In this document: positions 23,681-35,758 of the stretch, piece after piece
Layout of the letters: each line of letters begins with the position of its first letter
Numbering within the stretch: position 1 is the first letter of the stretch
Assembly (NCBI GenBank): GCA_021371995.1
Contig: JAJFVA010000023.1
Coordinates: forward strand, 1-64,000
Direction: 5' to 3'
From: Methanoregulaceae archaeon
GTDB lineage: Archaea; Halobacteriota; Methanomicrobia; Methanomicrobiales; Methanospirillaceae
DNA: 64,000 nt
The notes under the pieces: generated by a model
Seen by the model: the letters and a program-made list of their open reading frames with translations, nothing else
What the model was told of the DNA's origin: nothing
Databases searched by the model: none
Made by a program: the position numbers and the translations under genes

Positions 23681-23881
23681 TTCATTATTTTCATTTTTTA
23701 CCTGCTCGGGGAATCTTTTAATCTGTTCATGTTTACTCCCTCCCTAATGTATCATTTTTTACCGGACTGGGTTATGGAATGGGCATAGAATGATTTTTTC
23801 TCGTTAAAATGGAGAAAAATGCACATAAACTATTTATACTATAAATTTTTAAAAACCATGTGTAATAATCAAGGTGGCGAA

Positions 23882-24697
23882 ATGAAGACCAGAACATTCA
23901 TTATTTTACTTGCTGTCACCGTATTTGTGATAGCACTGGCAGGTACGGGGAGTGCTGCAAACCCTGTTCCTCCGAGCAATGAAACTGCCAGCCTCTATGT
24001 TGAGATCTCTGCGACAAGCATTGGCAGTCTCACTTCCCACACCGATCTCACCGCGGCCCAGGGTAACGGGGACCTTAAGGATAACCCTCCCCTGGAGCCA
24101 AACGGGGAAGGGGTTGCAACATTCGGGTATTATGAGGATACCTATGCGACGAGCGGGTCGATCGAATATACCAAGAACATTTATGTTGACACATCAGGCC
24201 AGACCCAGCCCTCCAATAACCTCGAAACCGAGAGGAGCATTGATTATTCCAACGATGGAGATGGAGATGGCATCGGCAGGATGTACTCCACTGAAGCGGT
24301 CATGATCGATATCGCTGCAACTGCATCAACAGATCAGAGCGGCTGTTGCCCATGGGGAACCACCAGTGAAGATGTTCTTCCGGCAACCAATGTCAGGGTA
24401 ATCACCGGCAGCGAAGTTGACCTCAAGGAGGGTTCCGTTGACTCGGAAAGCTCTGCCCGCACAATCTCTGAAAATGTCGATGAAGGGGTACAGGTCTCCT
24501 ACAACGTGGATGTCGATGGCAGTGGTCAGACCGGAAATGATGCTGCAGAAGGTACTGCAACGGTATATGTCGATGCAGTCATCCAGGAAGGCTCAGGAGC
24601 TGAGATTAACCAGACGACCGATATGAGCTACGAGGAATCTGTCACCGTGGACGGACTTATTGAGATCTCGATGCGGACCGGATACTCATCCCCGTAA
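23882..24697 (+). CDS. Secreted protein, distant member of the tandem paralogue family
   Basis: 271 residues from ATG 23882, chosen because it starts a signal peptide (about 1-27, ending GTGSA) and follows GGTGG; the longer frame from 23819 adds 21 residues without function. The body is acidic and Thr/Ser/Asp-rich, with a DGDGDG stretch, and contains one adjacent Cys pair (GCCPWG). The end, AEGTATVYVDAVIQEG, then YEESVTVDGLI, parallels the array proteins (AYMEVLIQEG; EETTITGDI), but the SGMVR terminus is missing. It is probably an extracellular protein; role unknown. Confidence 0.7.
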   Translation: MKTRTFIILLAVTVFVIALAGTGSAANPVPPSNETASLYVEISATSIGSLTSHTDLTAAQGNGDLKDNPPLEPNGEGVATFGYYEDTYATSGSIEYTKNIYVDTSGQTQPSNNLETERSIDYSNDGDGDGIGRMYSTEAVMIDIAATASTDQSGCCPWGTTSEDVLPATNVRVITGSEVDLKEGSVDSESSARTISENVDEGVQVSYNVDVDGSGQTGNDAAEGTATVYVDAVIQEGSGAEINQTTDMSYEESVTVDGLIEISMRTGYSSP

Positions 24698-27369: not shown

Positions 27370-28185
27370 TTATCTGACCATTCCGGATTCGTAGTGCATG
27401 AGTTTCGTGAAGTCGGTAATATCACCGGTAATAGTGGTTTCTTCATGGAACTCGATGCGCTCCATCAGGGATGCATTCGCATCTCCCGCACCGCCTTCCT
27501 GGATCAGCACGTCCATGTAGGCAGACGCCATACCCTGGGACGGGAGATCATCGATGAGCTCGGTTACGACGAGGTCATGGTTCAGCTCGACCGGGTGGTC
27601 TCCGGAAGGCATCACGAACCTGTCGGTTGAGGTGGTCCTGACGTTGGCCACGGTCATATCGATGGTGCTTCCGGCCTCAGCACGGTTGCAGTATGCCGGG
27701 AAGGTTTCAGTAACATCGGATGCGAACGGACAAATCACACTTTCGGAGGTAACCGTTGGGTTGGCTGCACCGTCAACGAAGATGTTATCGGATGACACGA
27801 CACGGGCGCCATCGATGCCAACGAAAGCGAGCTGCTTGTTTGCTTCAACATTCCACTGGCCGCTGATCTGGGCGCTGGTCTCTATGTCCATCTCCTTATC
27901 ATAGAGGATCAGACCAATGCCATTGGACATTGTGTCCTCAGTGTACGTCGACTCGTAGATTGCCGCGGTTCCATCAAGTGCAGGAACATCAGGCAGGCCA
28001 CCTACCTCAGTAGTGGTTCTCCACTGCATCTCAGTGCTTGAGGCAAAGTTGCCTACTGCATCGATGGTGGTGGATGTTACTATGCCCTGGGTTTCTGGAA
28101 CAGGGTCGATACCCCTGTCGGCCATGGCAAACCCGCAGACGATCATCGCGAGTGCAATGACCATGATACCGAATTTCTTCAACAA
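27370..28185 (-). CDS. Secreted tandem-array protein, copy A
   Basis: 271 residues, family unrecognised. It has a signal peptide (about 1-22), then the shared block ETQGIVTSTTIDAVGNF, a mid-region GLILYDKEMDIETSAQISG, a cysteine pair in ICPF and AYCNR, the block STIDMTVANVRTTSTDRF and the terminus LMHYESGMVR. The pattern suggests an all-beta extracellular protein with one possible disulfide. Unusually for the array it has no ATG: the start must be TTG 28185 or TTG 28182, with GGAGG just upstream. Its leader stem-loop (28204-28222) differs in sequence but keeps pairing, and its TATA-like box is further away than in other copies. Confidence 0.8.
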   Translation of the reverse strand: MLKKFGIMVIALAMIVCGFAMADRGIDPVPETQGIVTSTTIDAVGNFASSTEMQWRTTTEVGGLPDVPALDGTAAIYESTYTEDTMSNGIGLILYDKEMDIETSAQISGQWNVEANKQLAFVGIDGARVVSSDNIFVDGAANPTVTSESVICPFASDVTETFPAYCNRAEAGSTIDMTVANVRTTSTDRFVMPSGDHPVELNHDLVVTELIDDLPSQGMASAYMDVLIQEGGAGDANASLMERIEFHEETTITGDITDFTKLMHYESGMVR

Positions 28186-28203
28186 ATATTCCTCCTTGAT
28201 TCA

Positions 28204-28222
28204 ATGCTGTGCAGGACAGCAT
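28204..28222 (-). promoter_or_regulatory. Leader stem-loop of copy A
   Basis: On the coding strand ATGCTGT and ACAGCAT flank the loop CCTGC. Compared with other copies the closing pair is changed on both sides (A-T to T-A), keeping the stem. It ends 18 nt before the TTG start. The nearest TATA-like sequence (complement of GGCTTTAAAAG, 28268-28278) is about 47 nt upstream, further than in the other copies. Confidence 0.6.
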
Positions 28223-28431
28223 CACTCATCAGGTAGAGCCTGAAATGATAATAACCTTCTTTTTCAAGGCTTTAAAAGTCATATTTTTAACTTTTGGGTT
28301 CAATTATCCCATATTTGGGATGCCAATGTCAGAGAGGGGAAAACAAGAAAACCGGGCTGACAGACAAGCTGAACATAACCTGATGCTTCTTATCTGATGT
28401 CAGGAAATAAAAAAAAAGAATTTTTCAGGTT

Positions 28432-29241
28432 TTACCTGACCATTCCTGACTCGTAGTGCATGAGTTTCTCGAAGGTGGTGATATCACCGGTTATGGTGGT
28501 CTCTTCTGAGAATTCGATGCGCTCCATCAGGGATGCGTTATTGGCTCCTGCGCCGCCTTCCTGGATCAGGACTTCCATGTATGCGGAAGCGGTTCCCATG
28601 GACGGGAGATCATCAATGAGCTCGGTTACGACGAGGTCGTGGTTCAGCTCGACCGGGTGGTCAGCGGATGACATCACGAACCTGTCGGTCGAGGTGGTCC
28701 TGACATTTGCAACGGTCATATCGATGGTGCTTCCCGCCTCAGCCCTGTTGCAGTATGCCGGGAACATCTCGGTTACATCGGATGCAAACGGACAGATGAC
28801 TGCCTCGGTGGTTGTGATCGGGTTTGCTGCTCCGTCAACGAAGATATTGTCTGTCGAGGTAACACGGGCACCGTCAATGCCAACGAATGCGAGCTCCTTG
28901 GTGGCTTCTACGTTCCACTGGCCGCTGATCTGGCTGCTGGTCTCGACATCAAGTTCCTTGTCGTAGAGGATCAGGCCAACACCATTGCTTGCGGTGTCTT
29001 CAGTGTAGGTCGACTCATAGATGGCAGCTGTTCCATCAAGTGCGGGAACCTCAGGCAGGCCGCCTGCTTCTGTAGTGATCCTCCACTGGATTTCACTGGC
29101 GGTAGCAAAGTTACCCACTGCATCAATGGTGGTGGAAGTGACAATACCCTGGGTCTCCGGGACCTGCGGGATGCCACGGTCTGCCATGGAGAACCCTACG
29201 AGGAGGGCCATGGCAACAAATAGGATTGCAATCTTCTTCAT
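28432..29241 (-). CDS. Secreted tandem-array protein, copy B
   Basis: 269 residues from ATG 29241 (start MKKIAILFVAMALL, signal peptide about 1-20); the frame is open upstream but the Shine-Dalgarno GAGGAAC and the leader hairpin fix this start. It carries all family blocks: QVPETQGIVTSTTIDAVGNF, TEDTASNGVGLILYDKELDV, the ICPF/AYCNR cysteines, STIDMTVANVRTTSTDRF and MHYESGMVR. It differs from copy A mainly in the stretch between residues 45 and 60 and before the first cysteine, so divergence is concentrated in short loops. Role unknown; exported. Confidence 0.8.
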   Translation of the reverse strand: MKKIAILFVAMALLVGFSMADRGIPQVPETQGIVTSTTIDAVGNFATASEIQWRITTEAGGLPEVPALDGTAAIYESTYTEDTASNGVGLILYDKELDVETSSQISGQWNVEATKELAFVGIDGARVTSTDNIFVDGAANPITTTEAVICPFASDVTEMFPAYCNRAEAGSTIDMTVANVRTTSTDRFVMSSADHPVELNHDLVVTELIDDLPSMGTASAYMEVLIQEGGAGANNASLMERIEFSEETTITGDITTFEKLMHYESGMVR

Positions 29242-29260
29242 GATAGTTCCTCTTACATGC

Positions 29261-29279
29261 ATGCCGATACTCTCAGCAT
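29261..29279 (-). promoter_or_regulatory. Leader stem-loop of copy B
   Basis: Coding-strand ATGCTGA and TCGGCAT flank GAGTA; the one change from the commonest form leaves a U-G wobble. A TATA-like ATTTAAAG lies about 26-35 nt upstream (complement at 29304-29313), placing the stem at the predicted transcription start. Confidence 0.65.
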
Positions 29280-29298
29280 CAACAATAATTGGTGTCAT

Positions 29299-29488
29299 TA
29301 AAGGCTTTAAATCACCTTTTCCGGGAATTAAAAGTTATATCAATAACTTCCAGGTTCAACTATCCCGGATATGGGATGCAGAACAGGGTTGGAATCGGGT
29401 CTGATTCATCTTTAAAAAATTACAACCAGTTGGTTCTGATTCGTTGAGCTCAACTTTATACTCGTAACTGAGAGAGATGCCCACCCCG
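29299..29488. other. Intergenic stretch behind the copy B promoter
   Basis: Apart from the copy B TATA-like box at its left edge, this AT-rich stretch shows no frame, hairpin or family similarity that I can support. It runs into the ruined copy at 29489. Confidence 0.4.
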
Positions 29489-29631
29489 TCAGAATGTGTT
29501 CCTAGTAATGAGCTTCTCTAGGTTGGTGATGCCACCAGTAATGGGGGTCTCTCCGGTAAACTTGGTACGGGCAGTCAGCTCGGCATCCCGATACGAAAAA
29601 GCCCTGGAATGAGAACATCAATGTCGTTAAC
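29489..29631 (-). pseudogene. Ruined remnant of a tandem-array gene (C-terminal end)
   Basis: Read on the minus strand, this stretch gives IDVLIPG, then after a one-base frame shift TARTKFTGETPITGG and ITNLEKLI, ending in a TGA at 29489-29491. These line up with EVLIQEG, MERIEFTEETTITGD and ITTFEKLM in the intact copies, but the final HYESGMVR is lost and the frame is broken. No upstream two-thirds of the gene can be found before the next intact copy. It shows that the array has both gained and lost members. Confidence 0.7.
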
Positions 29632-29806
29632 ACAATGCCACAAATATATGTTGGTCAACTAATATGGCGATGTGGATATCTGGTAATATACTTGTTTACG
29701 CCCGAAGTGATTACGATTATCCGGTTTTTTCAAGACTTCAGCGGTTACGGGAAATACCAATCTTGTCCAAATAAAATAAAAAAAAATGATTGGAATCCGG
29801 GTGGTC

Positions 29807-30613
29807 TTACCTGACCATGCCGGATTCGTAGTGCATGAGTTTCGTGAAGTCGGTAATATCCCCGGTGATGGTGGTCTCTTCGGTAAACTCGATACGCTCC
29901 ATGAGTGTGGTCGGGTCAAACGGATCTCCACGGGCTTCCTGGATCAGGACTTCCATGTATGCGGAAGCGGTTCCCATGGACGGGAGGTCATCGATGAGCT
30001 CAGTTACAACGAGGTCGTGGTTCAGCTCGACCGGGTGGTCGGAGGACGGCATCACGAACCTGTCGGTTGAGGTGGTCCTGACATTGGCCACGGTCATGTC
30101 GATGGTGCTTCCAGCCTCGGCCCTGTTGCAGAATGCCGGGAATACGGTGGTAACATCTGCCGCAAACGGACAGATGACTGCGTCCACTGTCTCATCCGGC
30201 CAGCCGGCACCATCAACAAAGATAACATCGGATGACGTGACACGGGCACCGTCAATGCCGACAAATGCAAGTTCCTTGACTGCCTCGATGTTCCACTGCC
30301 CACTGATCTGACCGGAGGTCTCGACATCGAGCTCCTTGTCGTAAAGGATCAGGCCGATGCCATTTGATGCAGTATCCTCGGTATAGACCGATTCAAAGAT
30401 ACCTCCGTCATCAAGGGGAGGGATTTCGGTGAGTGGGTCGACAGCAGAGATCCTCCACTGGATCTCGGATGCAGACGCGAAATTGCCGACGGCATCGATT
30501 GTCGTTGAGGTGACAATCCCCTGTGTTTCAGGTACAGGGTCCATCGCATGGTCAGCCATTGCATAACCGGTAAGAAGGGCCAGTGCAATGACCATGATTG
30601 CGAGTTTCTTCAT
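29807..30613 (-). CDS. Secreted tandem-array protein, copy C
   Basis: 268 residues from ATG 30613, signal peptide about 1-20 (MKKLAIMVIALALLTGYAMA). Family blocks are all present: PVPETQGIVTSTTIDAVGNF, SGQISGQWNIEAVKELAF, ICPF and AFCNR cysteines, STIDMTVANVRTTSTDRF and LMHYESGMVR. The most variable stretches are AVDPLTEIPPLDDGG after residue 50, and a longer loop RGDPFDPTT before the last block. GGAGG lies 8 nt before the ATG. The separate promoter and leader hairpin show it is transcribed on its own, not in an operon. Confidence 0.8.
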   Translation of the reverse strand: MKKLAIMVIALALLTGYAMADHAMDPVPETQGIVTSTTIDAVGNFASASEIQWRISAVDPLTEIPPLDDGGIFESVYTEDTASNGIGLILYDKELDVETSGQISGQWNIEAVKELAFVGIDGARVTSSDVIFVDGAGWPDETVDAVICPFAADVTTVFPAFCNRAEAGSTIDMTVANVRTTSTDRFVMPSSDHPVELNHDLVVTELIDDLPSMGTASAYMEVLIQEARGDPFDPTTLMERIEFTEETTITGDITDFTKLMHYESGMVR

Positions 30614-30632
30614 TAAAATCCTCCTACATTTC

Positions 30633-30651
30633 ATGCCGATACTCTCAGCAT
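30633..30651 (-). promoter_or_regulatory. Leader stem-loop of copy C
   Basis: Coding-strand ATGCTGA and TCGGCAT flank GAGTA. The TATA-like AAATATAAAAG is 22-34 nt upstream (complement at 30674-30684). Confidence 0.65.
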
Positions 30652-30791
30652 CACAATTATTTCAGAGGGTGGCCTTTTATATTTATTGGTGATTCTTGAC
30701 GCGAATATCCCTGCATCTCATTTAAAATTCAGGGTATTGAAAATAGCAGGGTCACATTTCGTGTATTAAAAAAAAGGAAATCCAGGAGGTC

Positions 30792-31598
30792 TTACCTGAC
30801 CATGCCGGATTCGTAGTGCATGAGTTTCTCGAAGGTGGTGATGTCACCGGTGATGGTGGTCTCTTCGGTAAACTCGATGCGCTCCATCAGAACATCAGGC
30901 GAATCTCCGCTGGCTTCCTGGATCAGGACTTCCATGTATGCGGAAGCGGTTCCCATGGACGGGAGATCCTCGATAAGCTCGGTTACGAGGATGTCGTGGT
31001 TCAGCTCGACCGGGTGGTCTGCAGAGGACTCCACGAACCTGTCGGTTGAGGTGGTCCTTACGTTGGCCACAGTCATATCGATGGTGCTGCCTGCCTCGGC
31101 CCTGTTGCAGAATGCCGGGAAGGTCTCAGTAACGTCAGCTGCGAACGGACAGATAACAAAGTCAGTGGTCGTGTCAGGGTTCGCTGCACCGTCTACGAAG
31201 ATGACATCGGACGAAGTGACACGGGCACCGTCAATGCCGACGAATGCGAGTTCCTTGACTGCCTCGATGTTCCACTGGCCGGAAATCTGGGCAGAGGTCT
31301 CGACGTCAAGTTCCTTGTCGTAAAGGATCAGGCCAACACCATTGGATGCAGTATCCTCGGTATAGACCGACTCATAGATTGCTGCTTCAACGTCAAGGGG
31401 GGGGATAGTCGGAAGCCCGAAAGGATCATCAGTAATTCTCCACTGGAGCTCAGATGCTGATGCAAAGTTGCCGACAGCATCGATAGTGGTTGAGGTTACA
31501 ATGCCCTGAGTCTCGGGGACAGGGTCGATTGCCCTGTCAGCCATGGCAAACCCGACAAAAAGGGCCATTGCAATTAATACTACTGCTAATTTCTTCAT
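30792..31598 (-). CDS. Secreted tandem-array protein, copy D
   Basis: 268 residues from ATG 31598 (MKKLAVVLIAMALFVGFAMA signal peptide). It is very close to copies E and F, sharing SGQWNIEAVKELAFVGIDGA, ICPFAADVTETFPAFCNR, STIDMTVANVRTTSTDRF, DILVTELIEDLPSMGTASAY and FEKLMHYESGMVR. Copy-specific residues sit in the loop TDDPFGLPTIPPLDVEAA and in ASGDSPDV before the final block. The near-identity of copies C to F points to recent duplication or gene conversion. Function unknown; exported. Confidence 0.8.
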   Translation of the reverse strand: MKKLAVVLIAMALFVGFAMADRAIDPVPETQGIVTSTTIDAVGNFASASELQWRITDDPFGLPTIPPLDVEAAIYESVYTEDTASNGVGLILYDKELDVETSAQISGQWNIEAVKELAFVGIDGARVTSSDVIFVDGAANPDTTTDFVICPFAADVTETFPAFCNRAEAGSTIDMTVANVRTTSTDRFVESSADHPVELNHDILVTELIEDLPSMGTASAYMEVLIQEASGDSPDVLMERIEFTEETTITGDITTFEKLMHYESGMVR

Positions 31599-31617
31599 TA
31601 AAATCCTCCTACATGTC

Positions 31618-31636
31618 ATGCTGATACTCTCAGCAT
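31618..31636 (-). promoter_or_regulatory. Leader stem-loop of copy D
   Basis: Perfect seven-base arms ATGCTGA and TCAGCAT around GAGTA. The TATA-like AATTTAAATC is 24-34 nt upstream (complement at 31659-31669). Confidence 0.68.
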
Positions 31637-31792
31637 CAGAGTAATTTCTGATTACTCCCGATTTAAATTTTTCGGTTCATTAGTATCGGAATGATGTGCC
31701 AGGTGTCCCGCGTGCTGGACAATTTACTCATTTTGTGATTGCTCACGCTCTTATGAAACAATATGAAAAAAATGGAAATCCGGGAGGAGGTC

Positions 31793-32599
31793 TTACCTGA
31801 CCATGCCGGATTCGTAGTGCATGAGTTTCTCGAAGGTAGTGATGTCACCGGTGATGGTGGTCTCTTCGGTAAACTCGATGCGCTCCATCAGGGTATCAGG
31901 TGAAGCTCTGCTGCCTTCCTGGATCAGGACTTCCATGTACGCAGACGCGGTTCCCATGGACGGGAGATCGTCGATGAGCTCGGTTACGAGAATGTCGTGG
32001 TTCAACTCTACCGTGTGATCAGATGAGGTTGTAACGAACCTGTCGGTTGAGGTGGTCCTGACATTGGCCACGGTCATATCGATGGTGCTTCCAGCCTCGG
32101 CCCTGTTGCAGAATGTCGGGAAGATCTCGGTCACATCGGCTGCGAACGGACAGATCACGAAGTCTACGGTCTGACCTGGGGTTGCTGCTCCGTCAACGAA
32201 GATGACGTCGGACGAAGTGACACGGGCACCGTCAATGCCGACAAATGCAAGTTCCTTGACTGCTTCAATGTTCCACTGGCCGGTAAGCTGTCCGGAAGTT
32301 TCTACGTCAAGCTCTTTGTCGTAAAGGATCAGGCCAATACCATTGGATGCGGTATCCTCGGTGTAGACCGATTCATAAATTGCCCCATCGACAAGAGGCG
32401 GTACTCCGGGAAGACCGTCAATCTGGGATGTGATCCTCCACTGGATCTCAGACGTGGATGCAAAGTTGCCGACTGCATCAATAGTGGTTGACGTCACAAT
32501 GCCCTGGGTTTCAGGAACCTGATTTATGCCACGGTCGGCCATGGCAAAACCGGTAATAAGCAGGGCGGCTGCAATAATAACAATTGCGAGTTTCTTCAT
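31793..32599 (-). CDS. Secreted tandem-array protein, copy E
   Basis: 268 residues starting at ATG 32599 with a signal peptide (MKKLAIVIIAAALLITGFAMA, in part). It shares all family blocks and both cysteines (ICPF, TFCNR). Specific features are SQIDGLPGVPPLVDGA in the variable loop, the change ISGQ to LTGQ, and TTSSDHTVELNHD in place of the usual PVELNHD. A GGAGG precedes the start by 8 nt. Its leader hairpin is the weakest of the ATG-started copies (six pairs plus a mismatch). Confidence 0.8.
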   Translation of the reverse strand: MKKLAIVIIAAALLITGFAMADRGINQVPETQGIVTSTTIDAVGNFASTSEIQWRITSQIDGLPGVPPLVDGAIYESVYTEDTASNGIGLILYDKELDVETSGQLTGQWNIEAVKELAFVGIDGARVTSSDVIFVDGAATPGQTVDFVICPFAADVTEIFPTFCNRAEAGSTIDMTVANVRTTSTDRFVTTSSDHTVELNHDILVTELIDDLPSMGTASAYMEVLIQEGSRASPDTLMERIEFTEETTITGDITTFEKLMHYESGMVR

Positions 32600-32618
32600 A
32601 GAATCCTCCTACATTTCC

Positions 32619-32637
32619 ATGCTGGTACAATCAGCAT
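32619..32637 (-). promoter_or_regulatory. Leader stem-loop of copy E
   Basis: Coding-strand ATGCTGA and CCAGCAT flank TTGTA; the pair next to the loop is mismatched (A-C), leaving six pairs. The TATA-like ATATTTATAAG is 23-33 nt upstream (complement at 32660-32670). Confidence 0.6.
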
Positions 32638-32670
32638 TGTAAGATGGTATGGCAACGTCTTATAAATATT

Positions 32671-33042
32671 TTTCTTAATTCAGATAAAAGGGAAATAAAC
32701 CGGTAAAATGAGGAAAAATAATACAAATTGAACATATTGCCTCGTAGTGATAATTGTGCCAACCATGATGCCTGAATCAAAAACAACCAGGCCCTAGCCG
32801 ACCGAGCACCATGCCTCGCCTGTACTGTCAGAATAAAAAATGATTCAGGCTTGCCGGAGATCACGGCATCTCTTCCACCTTACCGTATCATGAACAAATG
32901 CATCAGGGACATGCTCCGCTTCCGGAATGGATTCCGCAAAAACAACAGGAAGAACCATCCGGTTATTTGATGGCAGACGGGGAATCCAGCCGGGCAAAAT
33001 TGTCAGGAAACGTGGTAAAAAAAAGTTGAAATCCGGGGGATC
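32671..33042. other. Intergenic stretch between copies E and F
   Basis: About 370 nt with no supported gene. The middle is more GC-rich than other spacers of the array. I found no match to the array family here, unlike the spacer at 29.5 kb. Confidence 0.4.
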
Positions 33043-33846
33043 TTACCTGACCATGCCGGATTCGTAGTGCATGAGTTTTTCGAAGGTGGTGATGTCACCG
33101 GTGATGGTGGTCTCTTCGGTAAACTCGATGCGCTCCATCAGGTTATCAGGCGAAGCTCCGCTGCCTTCCTGGATCAGGACTTCCATGTATGCGGAAGCGG
33201 TTCCCATGGACGGGAGGTCCTCGATGAGCTCGGTTACGAGGATGTCGTGGTTCAGCTCGACCGGGTGGTCTGCAGAGGACTCCACGAACCTGTCGGTTGA
33301 GGTGGTCCTGACGTTGGCAACGGTCATGTCGATGGTGCTGCCTGCCTCGGCCCTGTTGCAGAATGCCGGGAAGGTCTCGGTCACATCGGCTGCGAACGGA
33401 CAGATCACAAAGTCAGTGGTCGCGTCAGAGGTTGCTGCTCCGTCAACGAAGATGACATCGGACGAAGTGACACGGGCACCGTCAATGCCGACGAATGCGA
33501 GTTCCTTGACTGCCTCGATGTTCCACTGGCCGGAAATCTGGGCAGAGGTCTCGACGTCAAGTTCCTTGTCGTAAAGGATCAGGCCGATGCCATTGGATGC
33601 GGTGTCTTCGGTGTAGACCGACTCATAGATTGCTCCATCGTCAAGTGCGGGTACTCCGGGCAGACCGGCGGCTTCAGTCGTGATTCTCCACTGGATCTCA
33701 GATGTTGAGGCGAAGTTGCCGACAGCATCGATAGTGGTTGAGGTTACAATGCCCTGGGTCTCGGGGACAGGGTCGATTGCCCTGTCAGCCATGGCGAACC
33801 CGACAAAAAGGGCCATTGCGATGAATACTACTGCTAATTTCTTCAT
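33043..33846 (-). CDS. Secreted tandem-array protein, copy F
   Basis: 267 residues from ATG 33846, signal peptide MKKLAVVFIAMALFVGFAMA nearly identical to that of copy D. It has all family blocks and both cysteines. The frame extends 38 codons upstream through the leader hairpin, but the GGAGG at -8 and the conserved MKKLA fix the start. It differs from D mainly at TEAAGLPGVPALDDGA and ATSDATTDF before the first cysteine. D and F being almost the same while E lies between them suggests gene conversion or complex duplication. Confidence 0.8.
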   Translation of the reverse strand: MKKLAVVFIAMALFVGFAMADRAIDPVPETQGIVTSTTIDAVGNFASTSEIQWRITTEAAGLPGVPALDDGAIYESVYTEDTASNGIGLILYDKELDVETSAQISGQWNIEAVKELAFVGIDGARVTSSDVIFVDGAATSDATTDFVICPFAADVTETFPAFCNRAEAGSTIDMTVANVRTTSTDRFVESSADHPVELNHDILVTELIEDLPSMGTASAYMEVLIQEGSGASPDNLMERIEFTEETTITGDITTFEKLMHYESGMVR

Positions 33847-33865
33847 TAAATTCCTCCTACAATTC

Positions 33866-33884
33866 ATGCTGATACTCTCAGCAT
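33866..33884 (-). promoter_or_regulatory. Leader stem-loop of copy F
   Basis: Perfect arms ATGCTGA and TCAGCAT around GAGTA, preceded by a second GCTGAT. The TATA-like GTATTTAATA is 22-31 nt upstream (complement at 33906-33915). The rest of the spacer to 34163 is AT-rich with nothing recognisable. Confidence 0.68.
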
Positions 33885-34163
33885 CAGCATCAATTCGCGT
33901 TGTACTATTAAATACGTTTCTGTCGTGCTTTTTTAAAAAATAGATTATATTACCAGACAAATCACGATCAGGGTAACAATACGGCTTTTTTATTAATCAT
34001 ACTATAATATTCAAAGAATTATAATAAATTAGAAAAGCAGGCCGAAATTACCGGTCCCATGGGTTCCCTTTGAAGATGTCATGGGAACTCAGTTTCATTT
34101 TTTAGTGAGAACCCAAAAAAGGCCATAGGATGCAAAATCAGGTGAAAAGAATTGGTGAATGAA

Positions 34164-34565
34164 TCAGCTGAAGATATCTGACCGGAACTGCATCACTTTC
34201 TCAAACCTTGATATTGCCCCATCAACACGGGTATATTCACTGAATTCGATCCGTTCGCCTATGGAGGGATTCAGGGAATCACTGCTGCCTTCCTGGATCA
34301 GGCCATTCATATAGGCGGATACACTGCCCTGAGACGGAGTCTCAGGTGCGGTATCAAGGACGCGTATCGCGTATCGTATCTCGACCGGATCAAGACCAGA
34401 ACTATATTGTGCAATCCGGTCAGATGCCGATGTGGAGACACTTCCTGAACTGAGATCGATGGTGCTTCCCGACTCAATCCTGTTGCAGTATGCCGGAAGA
34501 ACAATAAGTGATGCCCAGATGAATGCAACGAGACAAACTGATGCCACGACATTTTCAATTTTCAT
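34164..34565 (-). CDS. Shortened, diverged member of the tandem-array family
   Basis: 133 residues. A hydrophobic N-terminal segment (about 5-24) runs straight into PAYCNRIESGSTIDL, which is the second-cysteine block of the full proteins; the first ~150 residues, including the ETQGIVTSTTIDAVGNF block and the first cysteine, are absent. The rest aligns (SQGSVSAYMNGLIQEGSSD, ERIEFSEYTRVDGAI, FEKVMQFRSD) but is strongly diverged and ends DIFS instead of SGMVR. It has no leader stem-loop. It may be a decaying gene or a new short form like the 118-residue protein at 23.3 kb. Confidence 0.65.
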   Translation of the reverse strand: MKIENVVASVCLVAFIWASLIVLPAYCNRIESGSTIDLSSGSVSTSASDRIAQYSSGLDPVEIRYAIRVLDTAPETPSQGSVSAYMNGLIQEGSSDSLNPSIGERIEFSEYTRVDGAISRFEKVMQFRSDIFS

Positions 34566-34740
34566 ATCCGATGCCCACTTCTCTAATATTCTGCGAGTTA
34601 TTTTCCTTATTGGATATTAAAGGTGATGAAGGCAGAGAGAAGTAAAGCCGGAAATAATCGGATATCAACTGCTTAGTTCCCGGAATGGAGAAAAAGGCTT
34701 TTCCCAAAAGGAAACTGAGCAAAATAAAAAAATCAGGGGG

Positions 34741-35556
34741 TTACCTGACCATCCCTGATTCGTAGTGCTGTACCTTTTCAAAGAGTGTGATATCACCAGA
34801 TATTGCAGTGGTCTCTTCGAACTCGATCCTCTCAGTCATATTGGCCGGGTCTCCGCTGCTTCCCTCCTGGATCAATACCCTGAGGAACGCGGATGCCGAA
34901 CCCTGGGATGGTATTCCATCGACGAGCTCGGTAACAAGAATATCATGGTTGAGCTCCACAGGGTGATCTCCCGAAGGCATCACGAACCTGTCGGTCGAGG
35001 TGGTCCTGACATTTGCGACAGTCATATCAATGGTGCTTCCTGCCGAGACCCTGTTGCAGTAGGCCGGGAACTGGCTGGATACATCAGCACCGAACGGACA
35101 GATCACGGCATTCCCGGTTGCAGTCGGATTCGCTGAACCTGAAACCATGATAAACTCATCAGAGTAGACCCTGGCGCCGTCAATGCCCACAAACGTGAGC
35201 TGCTTTGTTGCCTCAACGTTATACTGTCCCGAGATCTGGGCCCCGGTCTCGATGTCGAGCTCCTTGTCATAGAGGATAAGCCCGGTCCCGCTGGACTGGG
35301 TATCTTCCGTGTAGACTGTCTCATAGTATGCAGCCTCTTCACCGAGCGGCGGCACACCGGATAATCCACCTCCACTTGTGGTGGTTGTCCATGCAAGTTC
35401 GGTATGAGACTCGAAGTTGCCGACGGCATCGATTGTTGTTGAGGTTACGATACCCTGGGTCTCCGGGACGGGGTCAATTCCCCTGTCTGCCATGGCAAAT
35501 CCGGTCGCCATGAAAAGCAGCCCTATCGAGAGTGCCAGGATGATTGTCTTTTTCAT
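34741..35556 (-). CDS. Secreted tandem-array protein, copy H (most diverged full copy)
   Basis: 271 residues, start ATG 35556, signal peptide about 1-24 (MKKTIILALSIGLLFMATGF). It keeps ETQGIVTSTTIDAVGNF, LILYDKELDIETGAQISGQ, ICPF and AYCNR, STIDMTVANVRTTSTDRF and QHYESGMVR. Many other positions differ from copies A to F, for example LTFVGIDGARVYSDEFIMV and AFLRVLIQEG. It is the first gene of the array in transcription order and could be closest to the founder. It has its own TATA-like box and a leader hairpin with a compensated base-pair change. Confidence 0.8.
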   Translation of the reverse strand: MKKTIILALSIGLLFMATGFAMADRGIDPVPETQGIVTSTTIDAVGNFESHTELAWTTTTSGGGLSGVPPLGEEAAYYETVYTEDTQSSGTGLILYDKELDIETGAQISGQYNVEATKQLTFVGIDGARVYSDEFIMVSGSANPTATGNAVICPFGADVSSQFPAYCNRVSAGSTIDMTVANVRTTSTDRFVMPSGDHPVELNHDILVTELVDGIPSQGSASAFLRVLIQEGSSGDPANMTERIEFEETTAISGDITLFEKVQHYESGMVR

Positions 35557-35599
35557 GTCGTCACTCCTTCATCCGGGATACTTGTTGCACAGCAATGCA

Positions 35600-35617
35600 A
35601 TGCCAGTATCCCGGCAT
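35600..35617 (-). promoter_or_regulatory. Leader stem-loop of copy H
   Basis: Coding-strand ATGCC and GGCAT flank a longer loop; the fifth pair is C-G here where other copies have T-A, so pairing is retained with different bases. The TATA-like GCTTTATA is 24-31 nt upstream (complement at 35641-35648). The hairpin sits 44 nt before the ATG, further than in other copies. Confidence 0.6.
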
Positions 35618-35758
35618 CAGAATAGATTTTGGTTGAGGAGTATAAAGCATTTCTCAAAATTTACGTGAATTCATGCAATTTAAACAAATGAACCCCTCAT
35701 TTCTATTATTTAAACCGGAAGTTCAATGTATTCCAGAGAATCCGAAAAAAAAGGTATC

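What the first reader, a model, noticed from the sequence alone, without database searches (positions are those of the whole stretch)
28204..35617. Covarying stem-loop at the predicted transcription start of each array gene
All seven full copies have, on the coding strand, a stem of the form ATGCTGA-(5 nt)-TCAGCAT just before the ribosome-binding site. Sequence differs between copies but pairing is kept: the fifth pair is C-G in copy H instead of T-A, and the loop-closing pair is T-A in copy A instead of A-T; copies B and C show a wobble. In six copies a TATA-like box lies about 22-35 nt upstream, so the mRNA would begin with, or next to, this hairpin. It could be an RNA element controlling stability or translation of the whole family, or a shared operator.
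Basis: partly seen in the sequence, partly recalled or inferred. Interest (0 to 1): 0.82.

Follow-up and report, generated by a model that had tools for sequence, protein, structure and literature searches.

The report
Hairpin capping archaeal sheath-gene mRNAs
The genes for the amyloid-like protein tube (sheath) around certain methane-making archaea share a small RNA hairpin, preserved in 13 genera by matching mutations, that is predicted to form the very 5' end of their messenger RNAs and probably protects or controls those messages.

Summary
All seven full array genes (27.4-35.6 kb) carry the hairpin, and so do all 15 full-length copies in this genome. The array encodes paralogues of archaeal sheath (SH/MspA) amyloid proteins. 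Methanospirillum hungatei JF-1 has the hairpin only before its main sheath gene.

A covariance model finds the hairpin before SH homologues in 13 of 17 genera of the family, the same 13 that hold SH homologues, and nowhere else convincingly in 393 genomes of the phylum. Pairing is kept through compensatory changes. One-sided changes are mostly G-U (about 20 events) and rarely A-C (4), and loop length varies from 3 to 8, which favours RNA over a DNA operator. BRE, TATA, the -10 A and the Y/R start dinucleotide all place the start site at the G just 5' of the hairpin. In leaders about 24 nt longer the hairpin keeps its distance to TATA, not to the start codon.

I read it as a 5'-terminal mRNA hairpin that leaves the Shine-Dalgarno free, most likely stabilising abundant sheath mRNAs. 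A conserved GAGUA loop leaves a dedicated binding protein possible. Start sites and mRNA effects are inferred. Not in Rfam: a new archaeal variant of a known kind.

The parts
28204..28222 (-). 5'-terminal hairpin, copy A (ATGCTGT-CCTGC-ACAGCAT; loop-closing pair T-A)
   Evidence: model hit E 6.7e-5
29261..29279 (-). hairpin, copy B (ATGCTGA-GAGTA-TCGGCAT; T.G wobble at pair 5)
   Evidence: E 3.1e-9
30633..30651 (-). hairpin, copy C (same as B)
   Evidence: E 1.6e-12
31618..31636 (-). hairpin, copy D (ATGCTGA-GAGTA-TCAGCAT)
   Evidence: E 3.7e-12
32619..32637 (-). hairpin, copy E (ATGCTG-ATTGTAC-CAGCAT; closing A/C does not pair)
   Evidence: E 3.6e-8
33866..33884 (-). hairpin, copy F (ATGCTGA-GAGTA-TCAGCAT)
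   Evidence: E 1.1e-12
35600..35617 (-). hairpin, copy H (ATGCCG-GGATAC-TGGCAT; pair 5 is C-G), in a leader about 24 nt longer; 29 nt from TTTATA, 61 nt from ATG
   Evidence: not reported by model R1, which also models the SD spacing
28249..28254 (-). TATA-like box, copy A (TTATTA, -32 from hairpin)
29306..29311 (-). TATA-like box, copy B (TTTAAA, -32)
30676..30681 (-). TATA-like box, copy C (TATAAA, about -30)
   Evidence: read from the upstream sequence
31662..31667 (-). TATA-like box, copy D (TTTAAA, -31)
32661..32666 (-). TATA-like box, copy E (TTTATA, -29)
33906..33911 (-). TATA-like box, copy F (TTAATA, -27)
35641..35646 (-). TATA-like box, copy H (TTTATA, -29)
31605..31611 (-). Shine-Dalgarno TAGGAGG, copy D (equivalents: A 28191-28197, B 29249-29255, C 30620-30626, E 32605-32611, F 33853-33859, H 35564-35569), left outside the stem
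27370..28185 (-). sheath (SH) protein gene, copy A (TTG start)
28432..29241 (-). SH gene, copy B
29807..30613 (-). SH gene, copy C
30792..31598 (-). SH gene, copy D
31793..32599 (-). SH gene, copy E: 30% identical to M. hungatei SH over 193 aa (E 1e-19), both SH cysteines aligned; all-beta AlphaFold2 model
33043..33846 (-). SH gene, copy F
34741..35556 (-). SH gene, copy H (most divergent full copy of the array, 67% identical to E)
34164..34565 (-). truncated SH copy G, without the hairpin

Best explanation
Each sheath-protein (SH/MspA) gene is transcribed from its own BRE/TATA promoter, and RNA polymerase starts at the G directly 5' of the hairpin. The mRNA therefore begins pppG followed by a 7-bp stem with a 5-nt, GNR(N)A-like loop. 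The hairpin leaves almost no unpaired 5' nucleotides and ends about 19 nt before the start codon in most copies, so the Shine-Dalgarno stays open. I infer that it works as a structural cap. It hinders 5'-end-dependent decay (RNase J/aCPSF-type nucleases, and 5'-triphosphate removal if it occurs), so that abundant sheath mRNAs live long and are well translated. Shown here by sequence: homology to SH, conserved pairing, strand-specific wobble, fixed distance to promoter elements, restriction to SH genes. Inferred: the exact start site, mRNA stabilisation, and the nuclease involved.
For: Compensation: pair 5 shows TA->TG 7, TA->CG 5, TG->CG 2 and TA->CA 0 events on a tree of the proteins. G-U one-sided events 20 against A-C 4. 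Loop length 3-8, not 5 nt in 30 of 123. The alternative pairing register shows no excess. Hairpin-anchored leaders give BRE-like A at -36..-34, TATA at -32..-26, A at -11, T/C at -2 (93%), G/A at -1 (81%); with the start at -1 these sit where archaeal BRE, TATA, the -10 element and Y/R lie (PMC5316973). In three long leaders hairpin-ATG is 61-65 nt but TATA-hairpin stays 28-30 nt. Restricted to SH genes. In M. hungatei JF-1 only the main sheath gene has it, and that gene is by far the most transcribed SH gene (PMC11576556). RNase J-family and aCPSF1-family genes are in the genome. In bacteria 5'-terminal stem-loops stabilise mRNA (PMC3997798; vacA PMC4843948).
Against: No transcript data were available; the start site is inferred. 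The loop GAGTA is conserved over 11 genera (57 of 93 five-nt loops) and stem identity is conserved too, more than a passive cap needs, which hints at sequence-specific recognition. Same-branch changes of partner columns exceed expectation (11 against 3.5), but non-partner columns also do (33 against 13.5), so the strength of the phylogenetic test is moderate. Computed stability of single leaders is modest (z -0.6 to -2.1 for copies A-F), and copy F has a competing fold with the coding region. An A->G over T->C mutation bias on the coding strand could mimic part of the G-U excess. Hairpin and expression are linked in one genome only. RNase J activity on such ends was not tested.
Confidence: 0.5

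Rival explanations
1. The hairpin is a recognition site on the mRNA for a trans-acting factor (RNA-binding protein or small RNA) that controls the sheath regulon, for example autogenous or envelope-stress control of translation or decay.
For: Loop GAGTA and stem GCTGA/TCAGC are conserved in sequence across 11 genera while the TATA-to-start spacer is random; 61 of 93 five-nt loops fit GNR(N)A, a loop type known to bind peptides (lambda boxB, from own knowledge). One element for 14-15 genes per genome suits co-regulation.
Against: Several high-copy genomes carry many other loops and loop lengths before intact SH genes; no candidate factor or small RNA was sought or found.
Confidence: 0.3
2. A DNA operator: a palindrome at the transcription start bound by a dimeric regulator shared by all copies.
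For: Position at +1 and imperfect dyad symmetry are typical of repressor sites; strong sequence conservation of both half-sites.
Against: Half-site spacing changes freely in 30 of 123 leaders; compensatory double changes; one-sided changes are G-U on the coding strand about five times as often as A-C, whereas DNA symmetry predicts equality.
Confidence: 0.12
3. A leaderless short upstream ORF: the hairpin starts with ATG and in 34 leaders reads MLRVSA-stop, so conservation would be coding or start-codon driven.
For: ATG or GTG starts the hairpin in 108 of 123; 45 of 87 nineteen-nt hairpins have a stop at codon 7; leaderless translation exists in archaea.
Against: No in-frame stop before the SH start in 51 of 123; loop indels shift the frame; third codon positions 6 and 18 are nearly invariant (1-2% minor) while the second position of codon 2 varies 13%.
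Confidence: 0.04
4. No function: leaders are alike because the paralogues are recent copies.
For: SH genes duplicate often (PMC11576556); copies in the array are 67-89% identical to copy E.
Against: The hairpin persists over 13 genera with SH proteins down to about 30% identity while flanking sequence is random; pairing is kept by compensation.
Confidence: 0.02

Closest known systems
5'-terminal stabilising stem-loops of bacterial mRNAs (E. coli ompA/papA type, Helicobacter pylori vacA)
   Same: Short stem-loop at or near the mRNA 5' end, upstream of an open Shine-Dalgarno; ahead of abundant surface or secreted proteins
   Different: Archaeal; one covarying, sequence-conserved element shared by a whole paralogue family in 13 genera; start site and stabilisation not yet measured
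Archaeal sheath (SH/MspA) genes of Methanospirillum and Methanolinea (PMC6242892, PMC10593813, PMC11576556)
   Same: The window genes are members by homology; M. hungatei's main SH gene carries the same hairpin
   Different: In the papers' text that I searched no promoter, leader or regulatory element is described
aIF2-gamma binding to 5'-triphosphate mRNA ends in Sulfolobus (PMC3936769, PMC3792030)
   Same: 5'-end protection of archaeal mRNA against 5'-3' decay
   Different: Protein cap, general; here a cis RNA structure on one gene family
Rfam families
   Same: None
   Different: Nothing relevant in 4227 families; the only hit was E 2.7, far below its gathering score and on the other strand

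Membership tests
Archaeal sheath (SH/MspA) protein | Homology to the identified M. hungatei SH protein | tested here: met
Archaeal sheath (SH/MspA) protein | Conserved cysteine pair | tested here: met
   C150 and C164 of copy E align with C257 and C271 of SH; invariant in 23 sequences
Archaeal sheath (SH/MspA) protein | Signal peptide | tested here: inconclusive
   Hydrophobic N-terminal helix 2-16; no signal-peptide predictor was run
Archaeal sheath (SH/MspA) protein | Core of two six-stranded antiparallel beta-sheets | tested here: inconclusive
   All-beta model, 13 strands of 3 or more residues, pLDDT 81; no solved SH structure in PDB to compare
Archaeal sheath (SH/MspA) protein | Multicopy clustered genes | tested here: met
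   15 full-length copies, 7 of them in this array
Archaeal sheath (SH/MspA) protein | Present in a sheath | not testable with these tools
   Needs microscopy or mass spectrometry
5'-terminal stabilising mRNA stem-loop | Stem conserved as RNA | tested here: met
5'-terminal stabilising mRNA stem-loop | Lies at the mRNA 5' end | tested here: inconclusive
   Promoter elements place the start 1 nt 5' of the stem; no 5'-end data
5'-terminal stabilising mRNA stem-loop | Shine-Dalgarno left unpaired by the stem | tested here: met
   Stem ends 18-19 nt before the start codon in A-F, SD outside it
5'-terminal stabilising mRNA stem-loop | Prolongs mRNA half-life | not testable with these tools
   Needs mutants and decay assays
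Dyad DNA operator | Fixed half-site spacing | tested here: not met
   Loop 3-8 nt, not 5 in 30 of 123
Dyad DNA operator | No strand preference of one-sided changes | tested here: not met
   G-U 20 events, A-C 4
Dyad DNA operator | Cognate DNA-binding regulator | not tested
   No candidate regulator was sought
Any Rfam family | Match above gathering score | tested here: not met

The most novel reading that the evidence does not exclude
The hairpin is the target of a dedicated, still unknown archaeal RNA-binding factor that recognises a GNR(N)A-type pentaloop on a 5'-terminal stem and so coordinates a whole multicopy sheath regulon at the mRNA level, a gene-family-specific mRNA 'cap'.
Probability: 0.22. 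Interest if true: 0.82.

Novelty: new variant of a known kind. Interest (0 to 1): 0.62.

Why it matters
Cis-acting RNA structures at archaeal mRNA 5' ends with comparative support are few, and how sheathed methanogens produce very large amounts of one structural protein is open. A 20-nt element with a covariance model that picks out sheath genes in 13 genera, and only the main copy in M. hungatei, is testable at once. It also predicts which SH copies are expressed, and it offers a compact leader for stabilising transcripts in methanogens.

Tried and rejected
Alternative register TGATGCT/AGTATCA: paired cells 76.8% as in shuffles, no covariation excess. Viral copies: the SH protein gives none in viral contigs; the hairpin+SD pattern gives two phage sites, both weak with the model (E 0.014 and 0.039) and not before SH genes: coincidence. 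Three weak hits outside the family in the phylum (E 3.6e-4 to 8.4e-4) and those in genera without SH genes precede unrelated or no genes: chance. Structure search of the SH model in PDB and BFVD gave nothing meaningful (TM about 0.1-0.2), as no SH structure is held. RNAalifold on the MAFFT alignment kept only 4 pairs, so I counted the named stem instead. Same-branch co-change is a weak discriminator.
Full report
WHAT IS THERE. The array at 27.4-35.6 kb holds seven full and one truncated gene on the - strand, each full gene with its own leader. All seven leaders carry the hairpin at the coordinates given in the parts list.

WHAT THE GENES ARE. Pfam and NCBIfam give nothing above their cut-offs. 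Homologues occur 15 times full-length in this genome and in 53 of 108 genomes of the family, 13 of 17 genera. The nearest named relatives are Methanolinea. One relative genome is Methanospirillum hungatei JF-1: contig length 3,544,738, equal to the published size (PMC4704411). Its hairpin-bearing homologue encodes 377 aa, 40.5 kDa, with D43, K363 and C257 as published for the sheath protein SH (PMC10593813; 40.6 kDa in PMC6242892). Copy E is 30% identical to it (E 1e-19), and both cysteines align invariantly. The AlphaFold2 model is all-beta (pLDDT 81). So the array is a sheath (SH/MspA) cluster, a published gene family said to reach 31 copies per genome in Methanomicrobiales (PMC11576556).

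IS THE HAIRPIN REAL. I aligned 90 leaders by sequence alone. The 7-bp stem has 93.7% paired cells and 31 doubly changed cells against 7.2 in shuffles (0/500); sliding the partner drops pairing to 20-53%. Pair types include A-U, G-U, G-C and U-A at pair 1, U-A, C-G and U-G at pair 5, A-U, G-C and U-A at pair 7. Widely diverged leaders keep a stem with other sequence, for example ATGCCGGGACACCCGGCAT and CGGTGCTGAAAGAATCAGCACCG, and CATACTGATTTATTCAGTATG and ATGTTGAGGTACTCAACAT.

RNA OR DNA. Three tests separate an RNA helix from a dyad operator. First, loop length ranges from 3 to 8 nt (93 of 123 are 5 nt). Second, on a tree of the proteins, one-sided changes that give G-U are 20 events and those that give A-C are 4; at pair 5 TA->TG occurs 7 times, TA->CG 5, TG->CG 2, TA->CA never. 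DNA symmetry would make the two equal; an RNA helix on the coding strand predicts the excess. A coding-strand mutation bias could add to it. Third, the alternative register shows no signal. Simultaneous changes on one branch are a weaker test: partners 11 against 3.5 expected, non-partners 33 against 13.5.

WHERE THE mRNA STARTS. With leaders anchored at the first stem base (position 0), A-rich BRE lies at -36..-34, TATA at -32..-26, an A at -11, T/C at -2 (93%) and G/A at -1 (81%), while the rest of the spacer is near random. In archaea TATA centres about 27 and BRE about 33 nt upstream, an A/T element lies near -10, and initiation is pyrimidine at -1, purine at +1 (Thermococcus, PMC5316973). 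All fit a start at the G just before the stem. Three leaders of the copy-H type are about 24 nt longer; there the hairpin-ATG distance is 61-65 nt but TATA-hairpin is still 28-30 nt. So the hairpin follows the start site, not the ribosome-binding site. This is inference: no 5'-end data were available.

WHO HAS IT. A covariance model finds 14 sites in this genome at E <= 1e-4, all directly before SH genes; copy H is the fifteenth, found by eye. Next come sites at E >= 0.2, mostly reverse shadows of the same sites. In the family it hits the same 13 genera that have SH homologues; the hits I opened at E below about 5e-5 that had enough downstream sequence precede SH homologues. In genera without SH, weak hits precede other genes. 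In 393 genomes of the phylum only three weak hits fall outside the family, all chance. In JF-1 only the main SH gene has it; the published transcript ratio is 100:13 for Mhun_2271 and Mhun_1947, with the others very low (PMC11576556). I take the gene at 2,536,903-2,538,033 to be Mhun_2271 from its residues, size and place. One genome is not a correlation, but the prediction is clear: the hairpin marks expressed copies.

HOW IT MOST LIKELY WORKS. The mRNA would begin pppG-AUGCUGA-GAGUA-UCAGCAU. The stem leaves at most about one unpaired 5' base; its 3' end lies 18-19 nt before the start codon in copies A-F, and the Shine-Dalgarno is outside it. Bacterial 5'-terminal stem-loops block enzymes that need a single-stranded 5' end and lengthen half-life (PMC3997798; vacA, PMC4843948). 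Archaea have 5'-3' exonucleases of the RNase J/aCPSF type (PMC3792030), and this genome has RNase J-family and aCPSF1-family genes. A stabilising 5' cap is thus the most economical reading (0.5). The conserved GAGUA loop over 11 genera, a GNR(N)A-type sequence, is more than a passive cap needs and keeps a specific binding factor open (0.3). An operator (0.12) and a leaderless upstream ORF (0.04) fit worse; the ORF frame lacks a stop before the SH start in 51 of 123 leaders and does not vary like a coding frame.

NOVELTY. Not in Rfam. The sheath papers I searched do not discuss leaders, promoters or regulation. The kind, a 5'-terminal mRNA stem-loop, is known in bacteria; a family-wide, covarying archaeal one is a new variant.

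Noticed in passing
35570-35620 (-), L076 (leader of gene 597), L101 (leader of gene 681): Copy H and two relatives in other genomes have leaders about 24 nt longer; in H a 10-bp alternative stem with an inner hairpin (-25.8 kcal/mol) competes with the conserved hairpin.
   Followed up: partly
hairpins D and F; many related loci: The consensus hairpin with its 3' flank reads ATG CTG AGA GTA TCA GCA TGA/TAA, a possible leaderless 6-codon ORF (MLRVSA) in 34 of 123 leaders.
   Followed up: partly
about 29490-29610 (-): The spacer between copies B and C contains a decayed stretch resembling the 3' end of an SH gene, a likely pseudogene remnant.
   Followed up: no
23881-24697 (+) and 34164-34565 (-): A distant SH homologue (about 25% identity) on the other strand and a truncated copy, both without the hairpin.
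   Followed up: partly
L103, L114, L115: One copy in each of these clusters has an altered hairpin in which the other register (GATGCT...AGTATC) pairs as well or better.
   Followed up: no
L184 (M. hungatei JF-1), L183 (another Methanospirillum): The main sheath gene starts with GTG after the hairpin and SD in these genomes, a non-ATG start for a very abundant protein.
   Followed up: no
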